A stretch of 64,000 nt of DNA from contig JAPLCB010000010.1 of NCBI GenBank assembly GCA_026392455.1, positions 186,001-250,000 of the forward strand, read 5' to 3'. The notes beneath the pieces are model-generated. The model worked only from the letters and a program-made list of their open reading frames with translations. It did no database searches and was not told the DNA's origin. Positions 2,585-13,130 of this stretch are shown here, piece by piece (positions within the stretch are counted from its first letter, which is position 1; every line of letters starts with the position of its first letter). Origin of the DNA: Propionibacteriales bacterium. GTDB lineage: Bacteria > Actinomycetota > Actinomycetes > Propionibacteriales > Nocardioidaceae. The translations under genes were made by a program, and so were the position numbers.

Positions 2585-2983
2585 TCAGGCGCCCAGGAGC
2601 CGGTCGCACTCGGCGATCAGCTGCCGGCGGATCGGAGCTCCGCGCTCGCTGAATTCTCGCTGGGCCGCGACGTACTCGGCCCTGCCCTCGGTCGTCTCGA
2701 TCGCGACCGCGGTCCAGGGCTCACCCCTGGGCTCCAGCACCACTCCGCTGAAGTCGTAGGGAGCCGCTCGCATGTCCAGGACCCTGATGTCCCAGGCGAG
2801 CTCGAACGCCTCGGCCACCAGCTCGGAGCAGATCATCGGCGACAGCCGGAAGGCGTGCTTGTAGAGGTCCATGCCGGCGTGCAGGCACCCCGGCTGCTCG
2901 AACGCAGGTCGGTCGTCCCGGCCGGGCTGCAGCGTGTTCAACGCCCGGGCCTGGGGGGTGAAGAACCGGAAGGCATCGAAGTG
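2585..2983 (-). pseudogene. C-terminal half of split '3-methyladenine DNA glycosylase'-type gene
   Basis: The minus strand encodes the C-terminal part of a conserved actinobacterial protein usually annotated as 3-methyladenine DNA glycosylase: HFDAFRFFTPQARALNTLQP, then EQPGCLHAGMDLYKHAFRL, ending at the stop at 2585. Homology starts abruptly at the His codon 2981-2983; upstream codons come from foreign lower-GC sequence. The matching N-terminal half is at 7262-7731 and ends in the codons just before this His. A 157-residue frame opened by an ATG at 3058 reads across the junction, so a truncated peptide could still be made. The biochemical role of this family is not certain to me. Confidence 0.75.
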
Positions 2984-3094
2984 GAAGCAGAGAGTAGGCG
3001 AAAACCGGGCCTCCGTGTGGACGCCATCCGGTCCTACTGGGTAGGCCGAGGTCGTCAACTGGTGTCGTGTCGTTGGTCTGCTGCAAGCCCGTTC

Positions 3095-3151
3095 ATGACC
3101 TGCAACAATGTGTGCACGGCTTGCGCCCTCCTAACAGTCATTGCCCTGTGA
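3095..3151 (+). CDS. Possible 18-residue Cys-rich leader peptide
   Basis: ATG at 3095 opens a frame encoding MTCNNVCTACALLTVIAL, ending in TGA at 3149-3151. It has three cysteines in ten residues and lies 120 bases ahead of the permease. Two inverted repeats overlap it. No clear ribosome binding site precedes it, so it may be chance. Cys-rich upstream peptides acting as cysteine-responsive attenuators are known in mycobacteria; any such role here is speculation. Confidence 0.2.
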   Translation: MTCNNVCTACALLTVIAL

Positions 3152-3155
3152 CTGT
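3134..3155. promoter_or_regulatory. Inverted repeat ACAGTCA-N8-TGACTGT ahead of the permease operon
   Basis: Perfect 7-bp arms separated by 8 bases, in the 288-base leader between the insert edge and the permease start. A second pair of 7-bp arms (GCAAGCC at 3083-3089, GGCTTGC at 3118-3124) lies just upstream. Either could be an operator or part of an RNA attenuator; nothing else identifiable is in 2984-3271. Confidence 0.35.
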
Positions 3156-3271
3156 CGCGAGCCAACGTGGGAGTCAACTGTGTCGAAGCGTCGTTCGGTG
3201 CGCGCTCAGATAGGCGCAAAACGGCCCTTCGCAATTGCTTCAGCCGTGGTGCTGCGCGGGGTTCATTTGTG

Positions 3272-4621
3272 ATGGCAGTTAGACAGAAAGCCGGTGGCTG
3301 GCGCACGCTCGCGCTCCGCTTCGTTGGCGTTGTCCTCGCGTGTCTCGGGGTTGTTCTCACTGTCCTCGGATTCACTCCTGTCCCTAGCGTTAGTTCGGGC
3401 GGGACGGATGCGCTGATCGCCCTGTGTGAGGGTTTGCGAGCTGCTGGAACTGGTGCAGTGATCGTCCTTGCAGTTGGTTCCCTGTTCGTTGGCCTCATGC
3501 GTCTGCGGTCCCCTCGATGGCGCGAGCTGATCAACGTGACGGCACCTCCGTCGAGGAGCGAAGAGCGGAGTTGGTCGCGCTACGTTTTGGCGCCCGCGCT
3601 GGTGGCTGTGATCGCAGTCGGGACAGGGCTAGGTGCTGAGGCCGGACGTGGTGCTCGGGAGCCCATCGAGCAGGCGCTGAGCAGCCTCATTGGCGCGGAG
3701 GGCGTGCCGACAGTGGTCCTGTCTCAGCCGGAGGCCAAGCCGTTTAACCGATCTGTCGTGTCAAAGTCGCAAGTCGATGCAGTTCAAGAATGGGCGCTCA
3801 GTGGCGGCTACACCGCTATCGCCTATCGCCTGGCGCTGGGTGACGCGGCCAACCTAAGTAGTGGCGCGCACCCTTCAAGTGCATCAATCGTGGCCTTGCC
3901 AACTGACCGCGTGCCAGACCTACGACCGTCTGGATCTGAGTTGCCGGTCATGACCACGGCGCAGTTCGCTTCGGTCGGAGATCGTCTGTCAGTTGAAGGG
4001 CATGACGCGATCGTGGTCAAGACTGTCGACTGGTTCCCCGGCCTTGATCGAACTGCCGTCGTCATGTCAGAAGCGGGCTACGACGAGTTGAGTGCCGAAC
4101 CAGAGCCATACTCTGGCGTTCTCGTTGGGGGAGCGACGCCAATTGTCGTGCAGGATCATCTGTCGTCGGCAGGGATCGGCCTGTCTGCGGTTTCGGTCCG
4201 GTCGTGGCTGAACTCGTATGACCGCTTCTGGGACAGAAGCGTTACTCCCGTCATCATGCAATACATGCTGGCCGTCGCACTGGTCGGCGGTGTTGCTGCG
4301 AGCTTTATCAGAACTGCTGACGTGCTGCGTAGGCGTAGGCAGATCGCTATCCACAACGTCATGGGCGTCCAGAAAGCGATGCTTGTTCGGGCTGAGTTCC
4401 TCCGTGCGTTCCTCGAAACGGCAAAGGCAACGCTCTATGCGGCATTACCTGCGATTGGTCTCATCGCCGTCGCAAACTCGTCCCAGTTCGGCATGAACAT
4501 GGGGGCTTCGCTGGGTGGCCTTGGTGCTGGCGCTTTGCTGGTTGGAGCTTCGATGGCGATGGGAACGCTCGGTGCAATGCGCGCCATTCGTAGATTGGAT
4601 GCCGCCAATGAGATCCGGTAA
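3272..4621 (+). CDS. FtsX/MacB-like ABC transporter permease
   Basis: 449-residue membrane protein. Two or three hydrophobic segments lie near the N terminus (about 12-32, 52-75 and 105-122), then an extracytoplasmic domain of roughly 220 residues, then a three-helix C-terminal block. The C-terminal stretch RRRRQIAIHNVMGVQKAML matches the FtsX-family hallmark that couples the permease to its ATPase. ATG at 3272 is preferred because it precedes the first membrane segment directly; an upstream in-frame GTG at 3167 would add 35 residues without membrane character. The ATPase start overlaps its stop. Such pairs export peptides or lipids, or drive extracytoplasmic complexes; the substrate is unknown. 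Codon use is lower in G/C than neighbouring core genes. Confidence 0.7.
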   Translation: MAVRQKAGGWRTLALRFVGVVLACLGVVLTVLGFTPVPSVSSGGTDALIALCEGLRAAGTGAVIVLAVGSLFVGLMRLRSPRWRELINVTAPPSRSEERSWSRYVLAPALVAVIAVGTGLGAEAGRGAREPIEQALSSLIGAEGVPTVVLSQPEAKPFNRSVVSKSQVDAVQEWALSGGYTAIAYRLALGDAANLSSGAHPSSASIVALPTDRVPDLRPSGSELPVMTTAQFASVGDRLSVEGHDAIVVKTVDWFPGLDRTAVVMSEAGYDELSAEPEPYSGVLVGGATPIVVQDHLSSAGIGLSAVSVRSWLNSYDRFWDRSVTPVIMQYMLAVALVGGVAASFIRTADVLRRRRQIAIHNVMGVQKAMLVRAEFLRAFLETAKATLYAALPAIGLIAVANSSQFGMNMGASLGGLGAGALLVGASMAMGTLGAMRAIRRLDAANEIR

Positions 4622-5357
4622 GGCCGTGACCGCCAGCACGGAAGTGGATGGCCTGCGGCTTGAGGTCGAATCCCTCCGTGTCGTCTGTGATGGCACCACA
4701 GAAGCCATTCATCACGTCGATGTGGTCATTGAACCCGGTGAGTATGTCGGGATCGCAGGACCTAACGGATCAGGCAAGTCGACGTTCGGAAGCGCACTCC
4801 TCGGCCTTTGCGGGGGAGTCCTTGAGGTCTCTGGTGCCGTCCGATACAACGGCTTCGACATTTACGGTGACGGAGTCAAAGAGCGGGAGCGCACTGCCCT
4901 CCGGGCTCGTCACTTCGGCTATGTGCCGAAGCAAGCATCCTTTGACCCAGACCTGTCGGTTGAAGGCAACATCGTCCGCCCGCACCTTCTGGCTGGCCAT
5001 CGGCTGGACGCAGGTCATGTGAAGCAGTTGGCAAAGACCTTCGGCCTCAGCTCGTTGCTTGATCAGCCGCTTCGATCGCTGTCTTCGGGCTTTCAGCAGC
5101 GGGTGAACATCGTTCGAGGGCTTGCGAACCAGCCGGACGTGGCCCTGTTGGATGAGCCCACTGAGGCGCTTGATCCCAGTCAGAAGGCACGCCTTATCCA
5201 GGAGCTGCGTTCCTACGCGAGGCGTTCCGCCAGCACCGTGATCGTCATCTCGCACGAAGACACGGGTGCCGATCGCATCATCAACTTCGTCAGCGGCAAG
5301 GTGTTGCCACCGGCACCAACCCAAGACCAAGCAACCAAGCGTTGGGGACGCAAGTGA
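4608..5357 (+). CDS. ABC transporter ATP-binding protein
   Basis: 249-residue ATPase powering the adjacent FtsX-like permease. Walker A GPNGSGKST is at 51-59, the signature LSSGFQQ near 159-165 (variant of LSGGQ), Walker B VALLDE at 178-183 and the H-loop His at 216. The chosen ATG at 4608 overlaps the permease stop by 14 bases; a GTG at 4626 is the alternative. Its own stop overlaps the next start (GTGA at 5354-5357), so the three genes are translationally coupled. It belongs to the lower-GC insert. Confidence 0.85.
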   Translation: MRSGKAVTASTEVDGLRLEVESLRVVCDGTTEAIHHVDVVIEPGEYVGIAGPNGSGKSTFGSALLGLCGGVLEVSGAVRYNGFDIYGDGVKERERTALRARHFGYVPKQASFDPDLSVEGNIVRPHLLAGHRLDAGHVKQLAKTFGLSSLLDQPLRSLSSGFQQRVNIVRGLANQPDVALLDEPTEALDPSQKARLIQELRSYARRSASTVIVISHEDTGADRIINFVSGKVLPPAPTQDQATKRWGRK

Positions 5358-6292
5358 TCAAGACTCTGTCGGGTCACGCGAGGCGCGTTGCCATCGAAAC
5401 GGTCAACCTGTTCTTGAACAGGTCCATTACCTTCCGTCTCATCGGGCTTCTGAACCGGCGCACAGGGTTCCTCGCATCCGTTTTCTTGTTTTACCCAGCG
5501 AATGACCACTACGGGCTTAACTACGCCTACCGCTGGAGATTGGAACGCAACAGGTGGAGGCCGTGGCCGTCGGGTCTCATCGTTCAGAACGGTCGACTCA
5601 CGTTGATCTTCGGTGTCTCGTCCACTGAGGTTCACTTTCGCGATCCACAACACCGAGAGAACCTCGCCCGCCTAGAGCATTCGATGGAACGACTTCGGAG
5701 GACGCTCGGGGCCGAGCAGAAGACCTTTGCTGGCATCTTGCCCGGGCTCTTCCACAAGCACGGCATCATCAACCACCCGCCAGAAGCAGACACCACTGCC
5801 GACATCGTCGCAGCGAGCATTGAGAGATTGGTTGAGGAGAACGCGGGCCACCCCTTCGATGACGTGGTCTTGCTCGGCGGAGCAGGGTTCATCGGGACAA
5901 GGCTCGCCGAGCGGTTGCACGACCGCTTCAAGGTGCACATAGCCGACACTGCCGTGCCCGACTCGATAGCGGAGGCCGAGCCTGTCTTTCGTGCGGGCTG
6001 TGTTGTCGTGAACCTAGCCAGCGCGAGGGCGCTTGACGGTATCTCTGACTGGTTGGGTTCTGGTTCGATCGTTCTCAACGAGGTCTATCCCGAGCCCGAT
6101 GAGGCTGTCATCCGACAGCTCAGTAAGCGTGGCGTGCGTTGCTTCCACGTGGCAGGGGTCGAAGCCAAAGCCTTCCCGCCATTCCCCAGGGCTTATGCGG
6201 GTGCGATCCCGTGCTGTGCAGCGTGGTCAAGCGCCGAAGCGGTGCCCAAAGTGCGGGAGCTTGGTTCGGCATCGATAACGGCTATCAAATAG
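5354..6292 (+). CDS. Unassigned Rossmann-fold protein of the ABC cassette
   Basis: 312 residues starting at a GTG that overlaps the ATPase stop. A nucleotide-binding fingerprint GGAGFIG is at 175-181, followed by alternating strands and helices with VVVNLASARALDGISDWL and SIVLNEVYPEPDEAVIRQL. The order (about 160-residue N-terminal domain, then an NAD(P)-binding domain that checks a putative product site) loosely resembles acyl-ACP reductase or shikimate-dehydrogenase-like folds, but I cannot assign it to a family. The N-terminal part is rich in Arg and aromatic residues (FLFYPANDHYGLNYAYRWRL). Coupling to an ABC exporter suggests it makes or modifies what is exported. Confidence 0.55.
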   Translation: MIKTLSGHARRVAIETVNLFLNRSITFRLIGLLNRRTGFLASVFLFYPANDHYGLNYAYRWRLERNRWRPWPSGLIVQNGRLTLIFGVSSTEVHFRDPQHRENLARLEHSMERLRRTLGAEQKTFAGILPGLFHKHGIINHPPEADTTADIVAASIERLVEENAGHPFDDVVLLGGAGFIGTRLAERLHDRFKVHIADTAVPDSIAEAEPVFRAGCVVVNLASARALDGISDWLGSGSIVLNEVYPEPDEAVIRQLSKRGVRCFHVAGVEAKAFPPFPRAYAGAIPCCAAWSSAEAVPKVRELGSASITAIK

Positions 6293-6378
6293 GTCGCTTG
6301 TGCAAGTGACCGGTGGTGACCCTTGTGGTCGGCACAGTGGCGAACAAGTAGGGCGCACCAGAGCGAGGCGCCGGGCCT

Positions 6379-7143
6379 TCATCCGAGTTGGCGTGCGCAG
6401 TGGTCAATCAACTGCTGTCGGATGGGAGCGGCTCGCTTCGCAAAGGCTCGTTGGGACTGGATGTATTCCCGCTTGCCTTCTGGCGTCTCGATCTTGATGG
6501 GGGTCCATTCAGTCCCATGGGGCTCAAGCTGTAGGCCTGTTAGGTCATAGGGCGCAGCCCGCATATCGGCGATTCTTATGTCCCATGCAAGTTCGAAGGC
6601 GTCAGCGACGAGATCGCTTCCTACGAGGGCGTCGAGCCGGTAAGCATGCTTGTAGAGGTCCATGTTGGCGTGGAAGCACGACGGTTGCTCGAAGCCTGGG
6701 CGGTCATCGCGTGCGGGTTTCAAGGTGTTCAGGGGCAGAGCCGGAGGAGTGAAGAAGCGCACGGCATCCCAGTGACTACAACCGACGGTGTGGGTCTCCA
6801 CCACCGTGTCGGTTCCGGTGGAGCCGAGACGAAGGGGCTGGGGGTGTCGCCTGCCACTGTGCTCGGCGCGGTAGACCATGGCCCACTCATGGAGGCCGAA
6901 GCATCCGAAGTCTCCAGAGCGACCCGCAGTTGCGCCCAGAAGGTTGAGGGTGGCTTCGGCCAGCTCCCTCTTGGATGGGTCGAGCGCTCCTGCTGGTTGC
7001 CAGCGCATCAGTTGGGCTGGTCGGTAGGAGTAGTAGGTGAAAAGGAAGTCGTGAACGGGGTGCTTGATCCCTGCTGCGCGGCGTTCTAGGTGGGGTTCGA
7101 TGTAAGGAGCAAGGCGCGCAACGTGAGCCGCTTCCTTGGTCAT
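6379..7143 (-). CDS. Intact '3-methyladenine DNA glycosylase'-type protein carried by the insert
   Basis: 254-residue protein containing the whole set of blocks seen in the two broken host halves: HPVHDFLFTYYSYRPAQLMR near 27-46, FGCFGLHEWAMVYR, GCSHWDAVRFFTPP, EQPSCFHANMDLYKHAYRL and ADMRAAPYDL. It is clearly divergent from the host copy, so it is a separately acquired homologue rather than a duplicate. It runs in the same direction as the broken gene and converges on the ABC cassette, whose stop is 86 bases away. Actinobacterial annotation calls this family 3-methyladenine DNA glycosylase, but I see no motif that proves DNA glycosylase activity. Confidence 0.65.
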   Translation of the reverse strand: MTKEAAHVARLAPYIEPHLERRAAGIKHPVHDFLFTYYSYRPAQLMRWQPAGALDPSKRELAEATLNLLGATAGRSGDFGCFGLHEWAMVYRAEHSGRRHPQPLRLGSTGTDTVVETHTVGCSHWDAVRFFTPPALPLNTLKPARDDRPGFEQPSCFHANMDLYKHAYRLDALVGSDLVADAFELAWDIRIADMRAAPYDLTGLQLEPHGTEWTPIKIETPEGKREYIQSQRAFAKRAAPIRQQLIDHCARQLG

Positions 7144-7261
7144 GAAGCAAGCCTAATCGTGCTGGAGGCACCGCTGAGAGCCGAGTCGGCACTCGTGAAC
7201 TTCGCGTGCCAACGATCCGAAATTCGGGGCCGAACAGAATGTGCCTTAAGTTGCGTGCATC

Positions 7262-7731
7262 TGCGAGCAACCGATCCGGTTGCCCTCGACCACCTGGTCG
7301 GTCCCGGTCGGCCCGAGCCGCAGCGGCCACGGGTGCCGGATCTCGTTGCCCGGCGTCTCGCTGCGGTAGGCCATCGCCCACTCGTGCAGGCCGAAGCAGC
7401 CCAGGGTCGCCGGTCGCGCCGCGGTGGCGGCGAGCAGCGTGCGGATCGCCTCGACGACCGGGAGCTGTGCGGCGACGTGCTCGGCGCAGACGGTGCCGGC
7501 GACGTAGCCCTTGACCCCGTCGTACTCCGGTGCGTCCTCCAGCCGGACGCCGAACCCGGGATGCCAACGGCGCAGTGCGGCCGGCCGTTGGGAGTAGTAG
7601 GTGAAGAGGAAGTCGTGGACCGGGTGGGCGATGCCCTGGTGCCGACGTTCGAGGTGCGGCTGGACCCGGACGTCGACCCGCTGCTCGTGCGTGCGAGCGC
7701 GCTCGAGCCACTCAGGACGGGTCAGGATCAC
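7262..7731 (-). pseudogene. N-terminal half of split '3-methyladenine DNA glycosylase'-type gene
   Basis: Starts at GTG (complement of 7729-7731, VILTRPEWLERARTHEQRVD) 35 bases after the upstream gene's stop, and carries HPVHDFLFTYYSQRPAALRR and LGCFGLHEWAMAYR. Homology ends at GNRIGCS at the insert edge; the frame then reads five foreign codons to a TAA at 7246-7248. The rest of the gene is at 2585-2983. It lies directly behind the secreted-protein gene on the same strand, so the two were probably cotranscribed before the split. Confidence 0.75.
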
Positions 7732-7765: not shown

Positions 7766-9091
7766 TCAACGCAACGGGGTGCAGCCCAGCGCCTGCTCGA
7801 ACGCCGTGGGCGTCGCGTAGTAGGTCCCCTTCGGGTAGTAGGCACTCAGGGTCGTCTTCTCGGTCCCGTACGTCGCGTCCTGGACGGCGTGACCGAAGTC
7901 GGCGCGGGGAAGCATGTTGCGCATGTAGGCGATGCCCTTGGGGTCGAGGCCCCACGGAAGCCAGGAGACACCGCAGGCATCGACCGCGTTGGCCGGTCGG
8001 TCGGCGGCGGTGGAGATGGCGATCGTGAAGTAGCCGTTCCGGTCCACCTTCACCGACTCGTCGTGCACGCAGCCGTAGGTCTGCGTAGTCCGGTTCGCCG
8101 TGCACATCGACCAGTAGCGCATCTGCTCGCCGCCGGTCGTGACCCCGGTGCCGAGGTAGGTGCGCGGAGTGGTCGGCAGCTTGCCGCGGAGCAGGAGGAC
8201 CTTGCCGTACTCCCGCGTCAGGTAGGCGTAGACGTACTTGTTGTCGGCGTTCTCGCCGAGACCGCCCGGCAGCGTTCCGGTCACCGAGGCGATCGCCGGT
8301 GTGAGGGTGCTGCTGGTGTACTCGTTCTCGGTGACATCGGTGCCGTAGGTCTGGGCGACGTTCACGTAGCGCATGAAGTGCGGTTCCCGGGGTGCCAGCA
8401 GACCGAGCGGGGCGAGCGGCAGGTCGAGGCCGAGGCTGGCCAGGAACGTTGTCGCGGGCAGCAGGTCGGGGAGCGGGTCCGGGCACGTCGGGAGCGGGAT
8501 CCTGGTGCCGTCGGCCAGCACGACCGTGATCGCCGGCGCGGCCACGCCGCCGAACGGTCCGGTCCCCACGTCCGGCAGGTAGATCCGGTACGCCAGACCG
8601 AAGCCCCACTTCGAACCGTCGGTCGAGTTGTTGTAGAGCGTGTTCGCGGGACCCCCCGAGGCCGGCTCTCGGCCGCTGACCACGGTGACCTTGTAGCGGC
8701 GGTTCAGCGCGTTGCGGTCAGCGCCGACGCGGAAGGGGTTGACCGAGCCCGGTTCCGGTTCGATCAGGTCGTCCTTGATGTTGCTCGCCGTCTGGAGGGC
8801 GAGGCTGTAGGCCTGCAGCGACATGTACCGGGCGTGCGGGAATTCACCGGTGATCTCCAGCGACCCGCCGGGCGGGACCGGGACCGCTGCGCCGAGGTAC
8901 CGGGTCGCGAGGTCCGGGAACAGGATGTTCTCGCGGTCCGCGCTCGGTTCCAGGACCCAGCCGCACGAGCGGTCGCGGCTCGGGTCGGCCGCGTTCGCCG
9001 TACCGGCCAGGGGCGTGAGGCCCAGGACCAGCGCGGCGGCGAACGCGGTGAGGGTCAGGGGTCGGCTGAACGAACGCAGGGAGGGGCGCAT
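7766..9091 (-). CDS. Secreted protein of unknown function
   Basis: 441 residues with a classical signal peptide: basic MRPSLRSFSRP, hydrophobic core to about residue 30, then a cleavage site near ANA-ADP. The mature part has strand-rich character and the block GEFPHARYMSLQAYS, which recurs in a widespread actinobacterial exported family without known function, plus GSVNPFRVGADRN. Cysteines (CGW near the start, then MCTANRTTQTYGC and CGVSW) suggest disulfides. ATG at 9091 is preferred over one 45 bases upstream because the signal peptide begins there. It is divergent from a TetR gene that may control it. Confidence 0.7.
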   Translation of the reverse strand: MRPSLRSFSRPLTLTAFAAALVLGLTPLAGTANAADPSRDRSCGWVLEPSADRENILFPDLATRYLGAAVPVPPGGSLEITGEFPHARYMSLQAYSLALQTASNIKDDLIEPEPGSVNPFRVGADRNALNRRYKVTVVSGREPASGGPANTLYNNSTDGSKWGFGLAYRIYLPDVGTGPFGGVAAPAITVVLADGTRIPLPTCPDPLPDLLPATTFLASLGLDLPLAPLGLLAPREPHFMRYVNVAQTYGTDVTENEYTSSTLTPAIASVTGTLPGGLGENADNKYVYAYLTREYGKVLLLRGKLPTTPRTYLGTGVTTGGEQMRYWSMCTANRTTQTYGCVHDESVKVDRNGYFTIAISTAADRPANAVDACGVSWLPWGLDPKGIAYMRNMLPRADFGHAVQDATYGTEKTTLSAYYPKGTYYATPTAFEQALGCTPLR

Positions 9092-9128
9092 GCGGCGACG
9101 GTACCGAGAACGTGACAAAATCACAATG

Positions 9129-9163
9129 TGTTCCACATGGGACGTCTACTAGAAATGTTCCAC
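9129..9163. promoter_or_regulatory. Direct repeat TGTTCCAC in a divergent promoter region
   Basis: TGTTCCAC occurs at 9129-9136 and 9156-9163, 27 bp apart, in the 91-base gap between the secreted-protein gene and the TetR gene. The first copy also begins an imperfect palindrome (GTTCCACATGGGAC). Placement fits binding sites for the TetR encoded next door; this is inference. Confidence 0.35.
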
Positions 9164-9182
9164 CGCGGGCTAGAGTCGCGGC

Positions 9183-9767
9183 ATGACCACCGCAACGACT
9201 CCACCGCACCTGGAGCGTGCCACCCGCGATCACGCCCTCCGGTACGCCCGTGGGCAGTTCGAGCGCGGCGAACGTGTCGACATGGGGACCGTGGCCGACG
9301 CCCTGGCGGTCGGCCGGACCACCCTCTACCGGTGGGTGGGGGACCGCGAGCAGCTGATCGCGGAGATCTTCGCCGAGATCACCGACGAGCTCTTCGACCT
9401 GGTCGCGACCCAGGCGCAGGGAGCGGGCATCGACCGGGCGCTGGACACCGTCCGCCGGTTCATGGAGATCACCTCGGGCTTCCCCCCGCTGCAGGACTTC
9501 TGCCAGCGCGAGCCGACCCTGGCGCTGCGGATCCTGCTCGCGCCGGGTGGGCTGGTCCAGGACCGCCTCCGGGCGCGGATCTCCCAGGCTCTGGAGCGAG
9601 AACGTCCGGGGGCGGCCGCACCGCTGCCGTCGGACGTCGTCGACGTCCTGATCCAGGTCGGTGCCGCCCTGCAGTGGACCCCGATCGTGATCGGCGAGCA
9701 GCCCGAGATCGATCGTGCGCTGCAGCTCGGGAGGACGGTCCTCGGCCCGCACTTCCCGCCGCTCTGA
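9183..9767 (+). CDS. TetR-family regulator with QsdR-type C-terminal domain
   Basis: 194 residues. The helix-turn-helix is around 25-55 (VADALAVGRTTLYRWVGDRE), and the C-terminal ligand-binding half (RRFMEITSGFPPLQDFCQRE onward) looks like the QsdR-associated TetR domain common in Actinobacteria. It lacks the usual long lead-in helix and begins HLERATRDHALRYARGQFER, which is normal for this subfamily. It is divergent from the secreted-protein gene at 7766-9091 and probably represses it, itself, or both. Ligand unknown. Confidence 0.82.
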   Translation: MTTATTPPHLERATRDHALRYARGQFERGERVDMGTVADALAVGRTTLYRWVGDREQLIAEIFAEITDELFDLVATQAQGAGIDRALDTVRRFMEITSGFPPLQDFCQREPTLALRILLAPGGLVQDRLRARISQALERERPGAAAPLPSDVVDVLIQVGAALQWTPIVIGEQPEIDRALQLGRTVLGPHFPPL

Positions 9768-9797
9768 GCTGCGCAGGGAGCCGATAGGCTCGTATCC

Positions 9798-10598
9798 GTG
9801 CGCATCGCGAGATTCACCACCGGAGAAGATCCCCTGTTCGGCGTCATCAGCGGGGAGGTCGACGAGTTCGGGATCCCGGACGAGGACTGCCGGATCGTGG
9901 GACTGCACGGCGACCCGCTGCACGTCGGGCTGCACCTGTCCAACAAGGAGTACGCGCTGTCCTCGGTACGCCTGCTCTCACCGGTGATCCCACGGAGCAA
10001 GGTGGTCGGGATCGGCCGCAACTATGCAGCCCACGCGCGCGAGATGGGTGGGGACGTCCCTGACGAGCCGTTGATGTTCATCAAGCCGAACACCAGCGTG
10101 ATCGGCCCCGAGGACCCGATCTTCTACCCCCGGCAGAGCAACGAGGTGCACTACGAGGGCGAGCTCGCGATCGTGATCAGCCGCCCGTGCCGCGAGGTCC
10201 CGGCGGCCAAGTACGCCGACGTCATTCAGGGGTACACCGTCGGCAACGACGTGACCGCGCGCGACCTGCAGCGCAAGGACGGACAGTTCACCCGGGCCAA
10301 GGGCTTCGACTCGTTCTGCCCGTTGGGACCCTGGATCGAGACCGAGCTCGACCCGGCCGACCTGGCGGTGAAGACCTACGTCAACGGCGACCTCAAGCAG
10401 GACGGCCGCACCTCGGACATGATCTTCGGCATCCCGGAGCTGATCGAGTACGTCACCTCGGTGATGACCTTGCTGCCCGGTGACGTCATCCTCACCGGTA
10501 CCCCCGAAGGGGTCGGTCCGGTCCAGCCCGACGACGAGATCGAGATCTTCATCGAAGGCATCGGCAATCTGACGAACAAGGTGAAGCTGCGTGACTGA
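9798..10598 (+). CDS. Fumarylacetoacetate hydrolase family protein
   Basis: 266-residue FAH-fold hydrolase or decarboxylase acting on 2-oxo acids, with a divalent metal in the active site. The metal and catalytic blocks are visible: [13 protein letters not shown], the Glu pair in [12 protein letters not shown], then [14 protein letters not shown] and [13 protein letters not shown]. Members are often labelled 5-carboxymethyl-2-hydroxymuconate isomerase or 2-hydroxyhepta-2,4-diene-1,7-dioate isomerase, but the substrate cannot be read from sequence. GTG start at 9798; the stop overlaps the gltX start by 8 bases, so the two are cotranscribed, an arrangement also common in related genomes. Confidence 0.88.
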
Positions 10599-12168
10599 GA
10601 AGCGTGTGACCGACAACGTCCGAGTACGGATGGCCCCCAGCCCGACCGGGTCCCCGCACGTGGGCCTCGCCCGTACGGCGCTCTTCAACTGGGCCTTCGC
10701 CCGGCACCACGGTGGCACCTTCGTCTTCCGGATCGAGGACACCGACAAGGAGCGCAGCACGAAGGAGTCCTACGACTCCCTCGTCGAGGTGATGCGCTGG
10801 CTCGGGCTCGACTGGGACGAGGGTCCCGAGGTCGGCGGTGACTTCGGCCCGTACTTCCAGTCCCAGCGCGGCGACCTGTACGCCGACGCGCTGCAACGGC
10901 TCGCCGCCGGCGGGCACACCTACGCCTGCTTCTGCACCACCGAGGAGGTCGAGGCGCGGCACGCGGCCCAGCAGGCTGCGGCCAAGGCGGCGATCGCGAC
11001 TGCCAAGGAGGCCGCCGCCGCGAACCCCGACGACCTCACCCTGAAGGCACGGGTCGACGAGGCCGTCGCCGTGCTGAAGGGCCTGGTGATCGGCTACGAC
11101 GGCTTCTGCCGCGACCTCGACCCCGACCAGCTCGCTGCCTTCGCCGGACGGCCGCACGTGGTGCGCTTCCGGATGCCGGACGGGCAGATCGGATGGGACG
11201 ACCTCGTCCGTGGCGAGATCACCTTCGACACCCAGCACGTCCCGGACTTCGCACTGGCCCGGGCCAACGGGGACCCGCTCTACACCCTGGTCAACCCGGT
11301 CGACGACGCGCTGATGGAGATCACCCACGTGCTCCGCGGGGAGGATCTGCTGTCCAGCACCCCGCGCCAGATCGCGCTGCACGCCGCCCTGGGCGCCGTC
11401 GGGATCGGCAGGGGTGTGACCCCGCAGTTCGGGCACCTGCCCTACGTGATGGGGGAGGGGAACAAGAAGCTCTCCAAGCGCGACCCGGGTGCGAGCCTGC
11501 TGGGCTACCGGGAGGACGGCTTCCTCCCCGAGGGGCTCCTGAACTACCTGGCCCTGCTCGGCTGGTCGATCGCAGCGGACCGGGACGTCTTCACGTTGAC
11601 CGAGCTGGTCGACGCGTTCGACATCGCGGACGTGAAGCCGAACCCGGCGCGGTTCGACCTCAAGAAGGCCGAGGCGATCAACGCGGCCCACATGCGGAAG
11701 CTGTCGATCGAGGAGATCACCCACCGCGCTGTGCCGTTCCTCAAGAACGCCGGCGTGCTCAGCGATCCGGTCTCGGACGCCGACGCGCGGCTGCTGGAGC
11801 TGGCGATGCCGTTGGTCGGTGAGCGGGTCAACAAGCTGACCGAGGTGCCCGAGATGCTGGGCTTCCTGTTCGCGGCCGAGGTCACCTTTGACGACAACGA
11901 CCTGGCGACGGTGCTGGACGAGGCCGGGCGCGGCATCGTCGCTGCCGCCCGCGAGGCGCTGGACGGGCTGGCGGTCTGGAGCACGGCGGAGATCGAGACG
12001 TCGCTGCGGGCCAAGCTGGTCGACGAGCTCGGGATCAAGCCGAAGAACGCGTTCGGCCCGGTCCGGGTGGCGATCACGGGGAAGCGGATCTCGCCGCCGC
12101 TCTTCGAGTCCCTCGAGCTGCTGGGGCGGGCCGAATCGCTGCGCCGGCTCGACACCGTCCCGGGCTGA
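10591..12168 (+). CDS. gltX: Glutamyl-tRNA synthetase
   Basis: 525-residue class I synthetase charging tRNA-Glu with glutamate. The HIGH-equivalent is [12 protein letters not shown] (residues 17-27) and the KMSKS-equivalent is KKLSKRD (292-298). In Actinobacteria this enzyme is usually non-discriminating and also makes Glu-tRNA-Gln for GatCAB. An unusual Ala-rich insertion of about 40 residues (roughly 118-160, containing [20 protein letters not shown]) follows the CFCT motif where most GluRS go directly to the GYDG-type block; it lengthens the protein beyond the usual 470-500. Both cognate tRNAs lie just downstream. GTG start overlapping the FAH gene. Confidence 0.96.
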
Positions 12169-12176
12169 CCGGCGCG

Positions 12177-13130
12177 ATGAGCGACCAGACGGCTTCTGAG
12201 GAGCCACGTCCGTACCCGTTGGTGCTGCGGACCTCGGCGTACCAGTGGTGGCAGCCGGCCCTCGGGCTGTTCCTGGCCGTGCTGGCGTTCACGCTGTTCG
12301 CCCCGCTGGTCGGGCAGGCGATCGCGGCGGCTGCGGTCGCGGTCGACCACGACGGTTCGTTCGAGGACGCCTTTGCGCGGGCGGTCAAGGTCGAGCCGGT
12401 GACCTGGCAGGGACTGCTGTACTTGAACCTGCTCCTCGCCGGCCTGATCCCGATGATGTGGGCGATCGTCGCGGTGGTCCACCGGGTCTCCGCCACGTGG
12501 CTCACCTCGGTCCAGCCGGGCATCCGTTGGCGCTTCTTCTGGGCCTGCTCCGGCCTGGCGCTGGTCGCCGTCGGGGTCCAGCTCGTGCTCTCCACCTTCC
12601 TGCCGGGCGTGGAGAGCTCGGTGAGCGGGTCGGCGAACGACGTCACCGGCTCGTTGGTCGCGATGGCCGTGGTCGTGCTGCTGACCACGCCGCTGCAGGC
12701 GATGGGGGAGGAGTACTTCTTCCGCGGGTACCTGATGCAGGCCTTCGGTGCACTCACCCGACGTCCTTGGGTCGCGGTCGTGGTCACCTCGCTGCTGTTC
12801 GCGGTGGCCCACGGAGTCCAGAACGCACCGCTGTTCCTGGACCGCTTCCTCTTCGGCCTGATGGCCGGGTACGTCGTGGTGCGCACGGGGGGACTGGAAG
12901 CCGGCATCGCGCTGCACATCTGGAACAACCTGTTCGCGTTCGGACTGGCCCTCGGGCTGGGCAGCATCGACGACACGCTGCACGTGTCCGAGGTCGCCTG
13001 GTCGAACCTCCCGCTGAGCCTCGCGCAGAACGGTGTGTACCTGGTGCTGGTGCTCTGGCTCGCGAACAGGACGGGAATCACATCGCGCACTACCCGACCC
13101 GTTTTGCTGCCTACAACCACGCCCGTGTAA
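12177..13130 (+). CDS. CPBP-family intramembrane glutamic endopeptidase
   Basis: 317-residue multi-pass membrane protein with the three CPBP (Abi) motifs: EEYFFR at 178-183, FAVAHG in the next helix and HIWNN near the C-terminal end. These residues form the active site of Rce1-type intramembrane proteases. About seven hydrophobic segments are visible. It starts 8 bases after gltX and is likely in the same transcript. Bacterial members act in prenyl-protein processing, bacteriocin immunity or envelope maturation; the target here is unknown. Confidence 0.88.
   Translation: MSDQTASEEPRPYPLVLRTSAYQWWQPALGLFLAVLAFTLFAPLVGQAIAAAAVAVDHDGSFEDAFARAVKVEPVTWQGLLYLNLLLAGLIPMMWAIVAVVHRVSATWLTSVQPGIRWRFFWACSGLALVAVGVQLVLSTFLPGVESSVSGSANDVTGSLVAMAVVVLLTTPLQAMGEEYFFRGYLMQAFGALTRRPWVAVVVTSLLFAVAHGVQNAPLFLDRFLFGLMAGYVVVRTGGLEAGIALHIWNNLFAFGLALGLGSIDDTLHVSEVAWSNLPLSLAQNGVYLVLVLWLANRTGITSRTTRPVLLPTTTPV

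What the first reader, a model, noticed from the sequence alone, without database searches (positions are those of the whole stretch)
2585..7731. A gene split by a foreign insert that brings its own intact copy of that gene
The N-terminal (7262-7731) and C-terminal (2585-2983) halves of one gene, same strand, join exactly at codons GCS|HFDAF, with 4278 bases of lower-GC DNA between them. That insert carries a complete, clearly divergent homologue (6379-7143) of the gene it destroys. This is a gene-replacement insertion strategy: the lesion is compensated by cargo. Phages and islands often restore the 3' end of a tRNA or gene; carrying a whole diverged substitute is less usual.
Basis: partly seen in the sequence, partly recalled or inferred. 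Interest (0 to 1): 0.75.

Follow-up and report, generated by a model that had tools for sequence, protein, structure and literature searches.

The report
Gene split by its own spare
In this bacterium a 4.3-kilobase piece of foreign DNA has cut one conserved gene cleanly in two and carries a whole, distantly related and intact-looking version of that same gene, which suggests an inserting DNA that brings a replacement for what it breaks.

Summary
Observation confirmed. The gene is one intact frame in 53 of 53 best-ranked relatives' loci. The window's rejoined halves align gap-free at the joint with 20 of 20 relatives; only two bases (TG) are shared by both junctions. The 4,280-bp insert has lower G+C and carries an ABC permease/ATPase/reductase-like operon plus an intact, xenologous copy of the broken gene. 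The host halves group with genus copies, the inserted copy elsewhere (100/99). Its third-position G+C (0.68) matches its insert neighbours (0.64-0.72), not 16 chromosomal relatives (0.85-0.98), so it has probably long been cargo. The insertion looks recent.

New: the same gene is an integration hotspot in related genomes. Of 12 examined closely, eight keep a full gene plus a displaced 3' fragment; in two, a serine recombinase abuts the fragment. The window insert sits 38 codons upstream and brings a whole gene instead of a new 3' end.

Weak points: no recombinase, inverted repeats or second copy of the insert was found, so how it moved is inferred; rescue is untested. New variant of a known kind.

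The parts
7264..7731 (-). N-terminal half of the interrupted host gene (156 codons, ends EGNRIGCS); 7262-7263 is the TG repeated at the other junction
2585..2983 (-). C-terminal half of the interrupted host gene (132 codons and stop, starts HFDAFRFF)
2984..7263 (.). foreign insert, 4,280 bp (equally 2982-7261); low G+C; no terminal inverted repeat found
6379..7143 (-). intact xenologous copy of the interrupted gene (254 aa), same strand, starts 118 bp past the junction
7246..7248 (-). first in-frame stop of the N half, inside the insert
3272..4621 (+). FtsX-like ABC permease (open frame from 3167; in-frame ATG at 3272)
   Evidence: weak Pfam FtsX match, E 0.0025, below its cut-off; 25-27% relative beside an ABC ATPase in G264
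4608..5357 (+). ABC ATPase (in-frame ATG 4608, read by eye, overlaps the permease end; GTG at 4626)
   Evidence: Pfam ABC_tran E 2.6e-25 for 4626-5357
5342..6292 (+). Rossmann-fold protein resembling acyl-ACP reductase and the carmabin TAD (TTG 5342, or GTG 5354 overlapping the ATPase stop)
   Evidence: relatives L038-L043, model pLDDT 87.3, Foldseek best hits TAD and AAR

Best explanation
A foreign 4.28-kb cassette was recently inserted, precisely and without loss of host sequence, into a conserved gene. The most likely route is conservative site-specific recombination with a 2-bp core, as large serine recombinases do, by an enzyme acting in trans or lost since. The cassette carries a complete xenologous version of the gene that has probably long lived in the cassette's own base composition; it lies on the same strand just behind the broken N half, so it could replace the lost function, perhaps read from the old promoter. 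Shown: exact split, empty site in relatives, foreign origin of the copy, intact frame, use of the same gene as integration site in relatives, twice with a serine recombinase beside the far end. Inferred: the enzyme class, mobility as a unit, expression and rescue.
For: Gap-free empty site, 20 of 20; halves abut in 53 of 53. Tree: host halves with the genus (sister G015, 95/87), inserted copy with G164, G028, G013 (100/99). Third-position G+C of the copy 0.678 beside 0.64-0.72 of its three neighbours, against 0.851-0.975 in all 16 chromosomal copies measured. Host halves show no clear relaxation: dN/dS to G015 about 0.25, intact pairs 0.20-0.38. The same gene is hit repeatedly: 8 of the 12 genomes examined closely carry a full gene plus a displaced 3' fragment starting at the same (M)DLY codons. 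In G264 a serine recombinase with Resolvase and Recombinase domains abuts the fragment, in G139 one 49.5% identical to it does. In G264 and G220 the displaced fragment, not the gene's present 3' part, resembles the native lineage; in G139 the same trend is weaker (82% against 75% to the same row).
Against: No recombinase among the insert's proteins and no serine-recombinase remnant (remnants of other recombinase types were not searched for by tblastn). The window site is 38 codons upstream of the hotspot core, so those recombinases are not shown to use it. A 2-bp overlap arises by chance at about one junction in six (my estimate). The ends do not resemble each other, nor do they match the surroundings of the two resident large serine recombinases above 21-23 of 40 bases. 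No second instance of the reductase-like protein or the permease in 341 family genomes, phages, plasmids or viral contigs. The host branch is longer than its sister's (0.22 against 0.09). A low-G+C donor chromosome could also explain the copy's composition.
Confidence: 0.55

Rival explanations
1. Chance end-joining (NHEJ-like) or other illegitimate capture of a donor fragment at a break in the gene; the homologue on board is why the event was tolerated, not why it landed there.
For: No recombinase found, no inverted repeats, single instance. A 2-bp shared sequence is typical microhomology (recalled).
Against: Not one host base was lost, and landing in the homologue of its own cargo gene is a coincidence of order 1 in 4,000 unless targeted (my arithmetic). 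The gene is an integration hotspot in relatives.
Confidence: 0.22
2. Remnant of a larger integrative element whose integrase and transfer genes were deleted after integration, leaving both ends and four cargo genes.
For: G264 and G139 carry elements of about 7 and 48 kb with a serine recombinase at this gene; only about 0.3 kb lies between full gene and fragment in G215, G220 and G339, which looks like remnants.
Against: The four genes fill the insert tightly and no broken mobility gene was seen; in both elements above the recombinase lies beside an end, where here only short non-coding stretches remain.
Confidence: 0.15
3. Homologous recombination with incoming DNA (xenologous replacement gone halfway, or single-crossover integration).
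For: G013, same genus, has a gene of the inserted copy's type as its only one, about 10 kb from FAH, so replacement by this lineage has happened.
Against: Crossover inside the homology would make hybrid copies; here both host halves match the native genes of the genus and the copy is complete.
Confidence: 0.04
4. Assembly error or two ancestral genes.
For: Reads cannot be inspected.
Against: Both joints lie inside one 402-kb contig of a genome estimated 100% complete, 0.34% contaminated; the gene is single and unbroken in 53 of 53 loci checked.
Confidence: 0.04

Closest known systems
Islands that integrate in a protein gene and supply a new 3' end (e14 in icd; passages seen in PMC6379469)
   Same: target is a conserved coding gene; the incoming DNA makes up for the damage; a displaced fragment marks the far end. 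The G264, G139 and G220 loci found here look to be of this type.
   Different: the window insert does not restore the frame at the joint; it brings a whole separate, divergent gene.
Large serine recombinase elements targeting one conserved coding site (PMC10083194; core dinucleotide PMC3783163; passages seen of both)
   Same: exact insertion in a conserved gene; related elements at the same gene in other genomes; 2-bp core
   Different: no recombinase in the insert; different site from the hotspot in the same gene
SP-beta-like phages in spsM/kamA (PMC8270828, passages seen)
   Same: coding gene cut in two by a site-specific element
   Different: there function returns by excision, not by a substitute copy
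Xenologous gene displacement (recalled)
   Same: a foreign orthologue takes over from the native one
   Different: normally by homologous recombination; here the native gene is cut and left in place

Membership tests
large-serine-recombinase genomic island | encodes Resolvase+Recombinase protein | tested here: not met
   no Pfam or PHROG recombinase match among the insert proteins scanned; tblastn with four serine recombinases gives only chance-level hits
large-serine-recombinase genomic island | precise insertion with a shared 2-bp core | tested here: met
   TG at both joints, no loss of host bases; weak, can be chance
large-serine-recombinase genomic island | same element or same site used elsewhere | tested here: not met
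   same gene used in 8 further genomes but at a site 38 codons downstream; insert not found again by two of its proteins
3'-end-restoring island (icd/e14 type) | element-borne 3' end fused in frame at the joint | tested here: not met
   N half stops at 7246-7248, in the insert
insertion sequence / DDE transposon | terminal inverted repeats and transposase | tested here: not met
   alignment of the two 60-base ends no better than shuffles (177 of 200 as good or better); no transposase match
xenologous replacement by homologous recombination | hybrid gene at the crossover | tested here: not met
   rejoined host gene and copy group cleanly apart; each half matches native copies of the genus
gene-replacing insert (function regained through the copy) | copy is expressed and restores function | not testable with these tools
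   intact frame and conserved residues only

The most novel reading that the evidence does not exclude
A class of recombinase-free cassettes that move in trans, always into one gene, and stay harmless because each carries a whole, long-domesticated substitute for that gene, so that the target gene of a lineage is handed over from chromosome to mobile cargo.
Probability: 0.2. Interest if true: 0.75.

Novelty: new variant of a known kind. Interest (0 to 1): 0.5.

Why it matters
If true, it extends the known trick of elements that repair the gene they enter from supplying a new end to supplying a whole foreign gene, and ties it to a gene that relatives show to be a repeated integration site whose 3' third is swapped by incoming elements. 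That gives a tractable case for asking how mobile DNA makes conserved genes safe landing sites and how it drives replacement of native genes by foreign ones.

Tried and rejected
Phage, plasmid or viral origin: the reductase-like protein and the permease have no match in phages or plasmids; the reductase-like protein, the permease and the gene copy have none in viral contigs; the gene copy has none in phages and five plasmid matches under 60% identity (DNA-level, two short ones). The ATPase was not searched there; it matches phage ABC-transporter families (PHROG 293, E 1.7e-40), which I take as generic.

Defence cassette: only the ATPase matches defence models (best mad3, E 2.9e-25); the other three proteins match none. 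I take this as generic ATPase similarity.

Resident recombinases as movers: the genome has three matches to the Recombinase domain: two large proteins of 467 and 497 aa and a shorter one. They lie in elements at what I read as the tpiA 3' end and the dapF 5' end (names recalled). The insert's 40-base ends match those 20-kb stretches in at most 21-23 positions, the two best places of each comparison not being at the element borders. Inconclusive rather than excluded.

Known protein family for the broken gene: no Pfam or NCBIfam family, no PHROG, no solved relative for the copy (weak chance-level lines only). One plasmid record calls a relative '3-methyladenine DNA glycosylase'; I found nothing to support that label and do not use it.

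Literature: phrase searches for an element carrying a whole substitute for its target gene, or for this gene as an attachment site listed no such paper; four of them returned nothing at all, the terms being strict, and only open-licence papers are held. I had recalled Bacillus thy phages as a precedent; passages of PMC8270828 say phi3T enters kamA, so it is not one.

Full report
WHAT IS THERE. The window is bases 186001-250000 of contig 5 (402 kb) of a 3.55-Mb, 11-contig genome. On the minus strand a conserved gene is cut in two. Its N half is 7264-7731 and its C half 2585-2983. In 53 of 53 loci of relatives tabulated the two halves abut to the base. In the 20 larger loci what I read as gltX and a fumarylacetoacetate-hydrolase-like gene (FAH) lie beside it in 19, and an amidase in 15 (names recalled). 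Joining 2983 to 7264 aligns gap-free around the joint in 20 of 20, at 73-84% identity. The only ambiguity is TG, present at 2982-2983 and again at 7262-7263, so 4,280 bp were added and no host base was lost. I found no terminal inverted repeats (177 of 200 shuffles score as well or better).

THE INSERT. Three overlapping or abutting genes run rightwards: an FtsX-like ABC permease (weak Pfam match below its cut-off), an ABC ATPase, and a Rossmann protein. A pattern-based scan of 84,980 species' genomes found six relatives of the Rossmann protein, 34-49% identical, all in metagenome-assembled genomes titled Actinomycetota, Planctomycetota, Andersenbacteria, Uhrbacteria, Bacteroidetes and 'bacterium'. 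Apart from the window's own genome, 394 genomes of the class and 341 of the family (own genome counted in both) gave only short partial matches. Its model (pLDDT 87.3, pTM 0.85) is nearest to the carmabin TAD and to acyl-ACP reductase (TM about 0.5, Foldseek E 2.6e-8 and 1.1e-5). The Cys pair of IPCCAA is invariant among the seven sequences. A thioester-reductase-like enzyme with an exporter is therefore my guess for the cargo. It is not tested.

THE COPY. On the minus strand, convergent with these genes and in line with the broken gene, lies 6379-7143, a complete 254-aa homologue. It starts 118 bp past the joint. The N half stops at 7246-7248, so host transcription could run on into the copy; no promoter-like site was found in 2950-7300, which says little, since only a sigma-70 consensus was scanned. 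In a 62-row tree the rejoined host gene is sister to G015 of the same genus (95/87), while the copy groups with G164 and G028 of another genus and with G013 (100/99). G013 is of the window's genus but has the copy's type as its only match, about 10 kb from FAH. Third-position G+C is 0.678 for the copy, 0.64-0.72 for the other insert genes, 0.917 for each host half, and 0.851-0.975 in the 16 chromosomal relatives measured (host halves, where two insert genes were first measured out of frame). The simplest reading is that the copy has long travelled with the low-G+C insert; a low-G+C donor relative is the alternative. dN/dS is about 0.25 between the host gene and G015 and 0.23-0.33 to six others, against 0.20-0.38 among the intact genes compared, so nothing yet shows decay and the break looks recent. 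Against this, the tree gives the host a longer branch than its sister (0.22 against 0.09).

THE SAME GENE IN RELATIVES. A search of 391 genomes of the order found the gene in 252. I examined 12: eleven with three or more matches there, and G004. Eight (G215, G189, G264, G174, G139, G339, G220, G075) carry a full gene and, downstream on the same strand, a displaced 3' fragment. G448 has the gene split with no full copy. G350 and G456 showed nothing clear, and G004 has two copies on different contigs, one cut by a contig end. Displaced fragments start at the same (M)DLY codons, with GACCTCTAC or a near match. In G264 a 491-aa recombinase (Resolvase, Recombinase domains) lies beside the fragment. 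In G139, where the fragment lies 48 kb from the full gene, a 484-aa recombinase 49.5% identical to it lies beside the fragment. tblastn with four serine recombinases found none in the other 18 fetched stretches; in G189 and G174 a transposase of another kind lies between gene and fragment. In G264 and G220 the displaced fragment is closer to the native lineage than the gene's present 3' part; in G139 both match the same row, the fragment better (82% against 75%); the far one of the two G339 fragments is native-like but broken; in G189, G215 and G174 the two are alike; G075 is unclear. Four of 62 rows bear the same odd junction DLYGKV. G339 has two displaced fragments in a row, as repeated entry would leave. 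So I read this gene as a repeated integration target whose 3' third is replaced by incoming elements. The window's own genome has serine-recombinase elements at what I read as the ends of tpiA and dapF.

INTERPRETATION. The window insert differs from these in three ways: site 38 codons upstream, no recombinase found, and a whole gene instead of a new end. Because a random hit in the homologue of its own cargo is very unlikely and no base was lost, I favour site-specific entry by a recombinase that is no longer on board, at 0.55. Illegitimate capture tolerated thanks to the copy remains possible. The gene was not found in 139 of the 391 genomes (112 of 354 good-quality ones), so rescue may give an advantage rather than be vital.

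KNOWN AND NEW. Elements that supply a new end for their target are known: e14 in icd (PMC6379469), genomic islands in general (PMC12884075), serine recombinases with one conserved coding target (PMC10083194) and prophages that split a gene (PMC8270828). Of these I read passages only. I found no account of a whole divergent substitute in my phrase searches, which is weak evidence of absence.

Noticed in passing
L121 (G339) 3312-5314: Full gene followed by two successive displaced 3' fragments, like a record of two integrations at one site.
   Followed up: partly
L119 3506-11516; L125-L127 (G139): Serine-recombinase elements of about 7 and 48 kb at the MDLY codons of the gene, apparently exchanging its 3' third.
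   Followed up: partly
L140 2467-11097; L141 about 8587-13025: Resident serine-recombinase elements in the window's own genome at what I read as the tpiA 3' end (about 17-bp repeat) and the dapF 5' end.
   Followed up: partly
L012, L014, L016, L017 and others: Between roughly residues 52 and 57 of the inserted copy's numbering, orthologues carry loops of very different length and sequence, in L012 a tandem repeat (SSLDELVETPVTI twice), as if a small element had entered the frame.
   Followed up: no
L038 2766-6609: The closest relative of the Rossmann protein lies near what I read as a guaA gene, a frequent island site (recalled).
   Followed up: no
L124 (G448) 3367-6685: The gene is split about 2.6 kb apart with no full copy, so it can be lost.
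   Followed up: no
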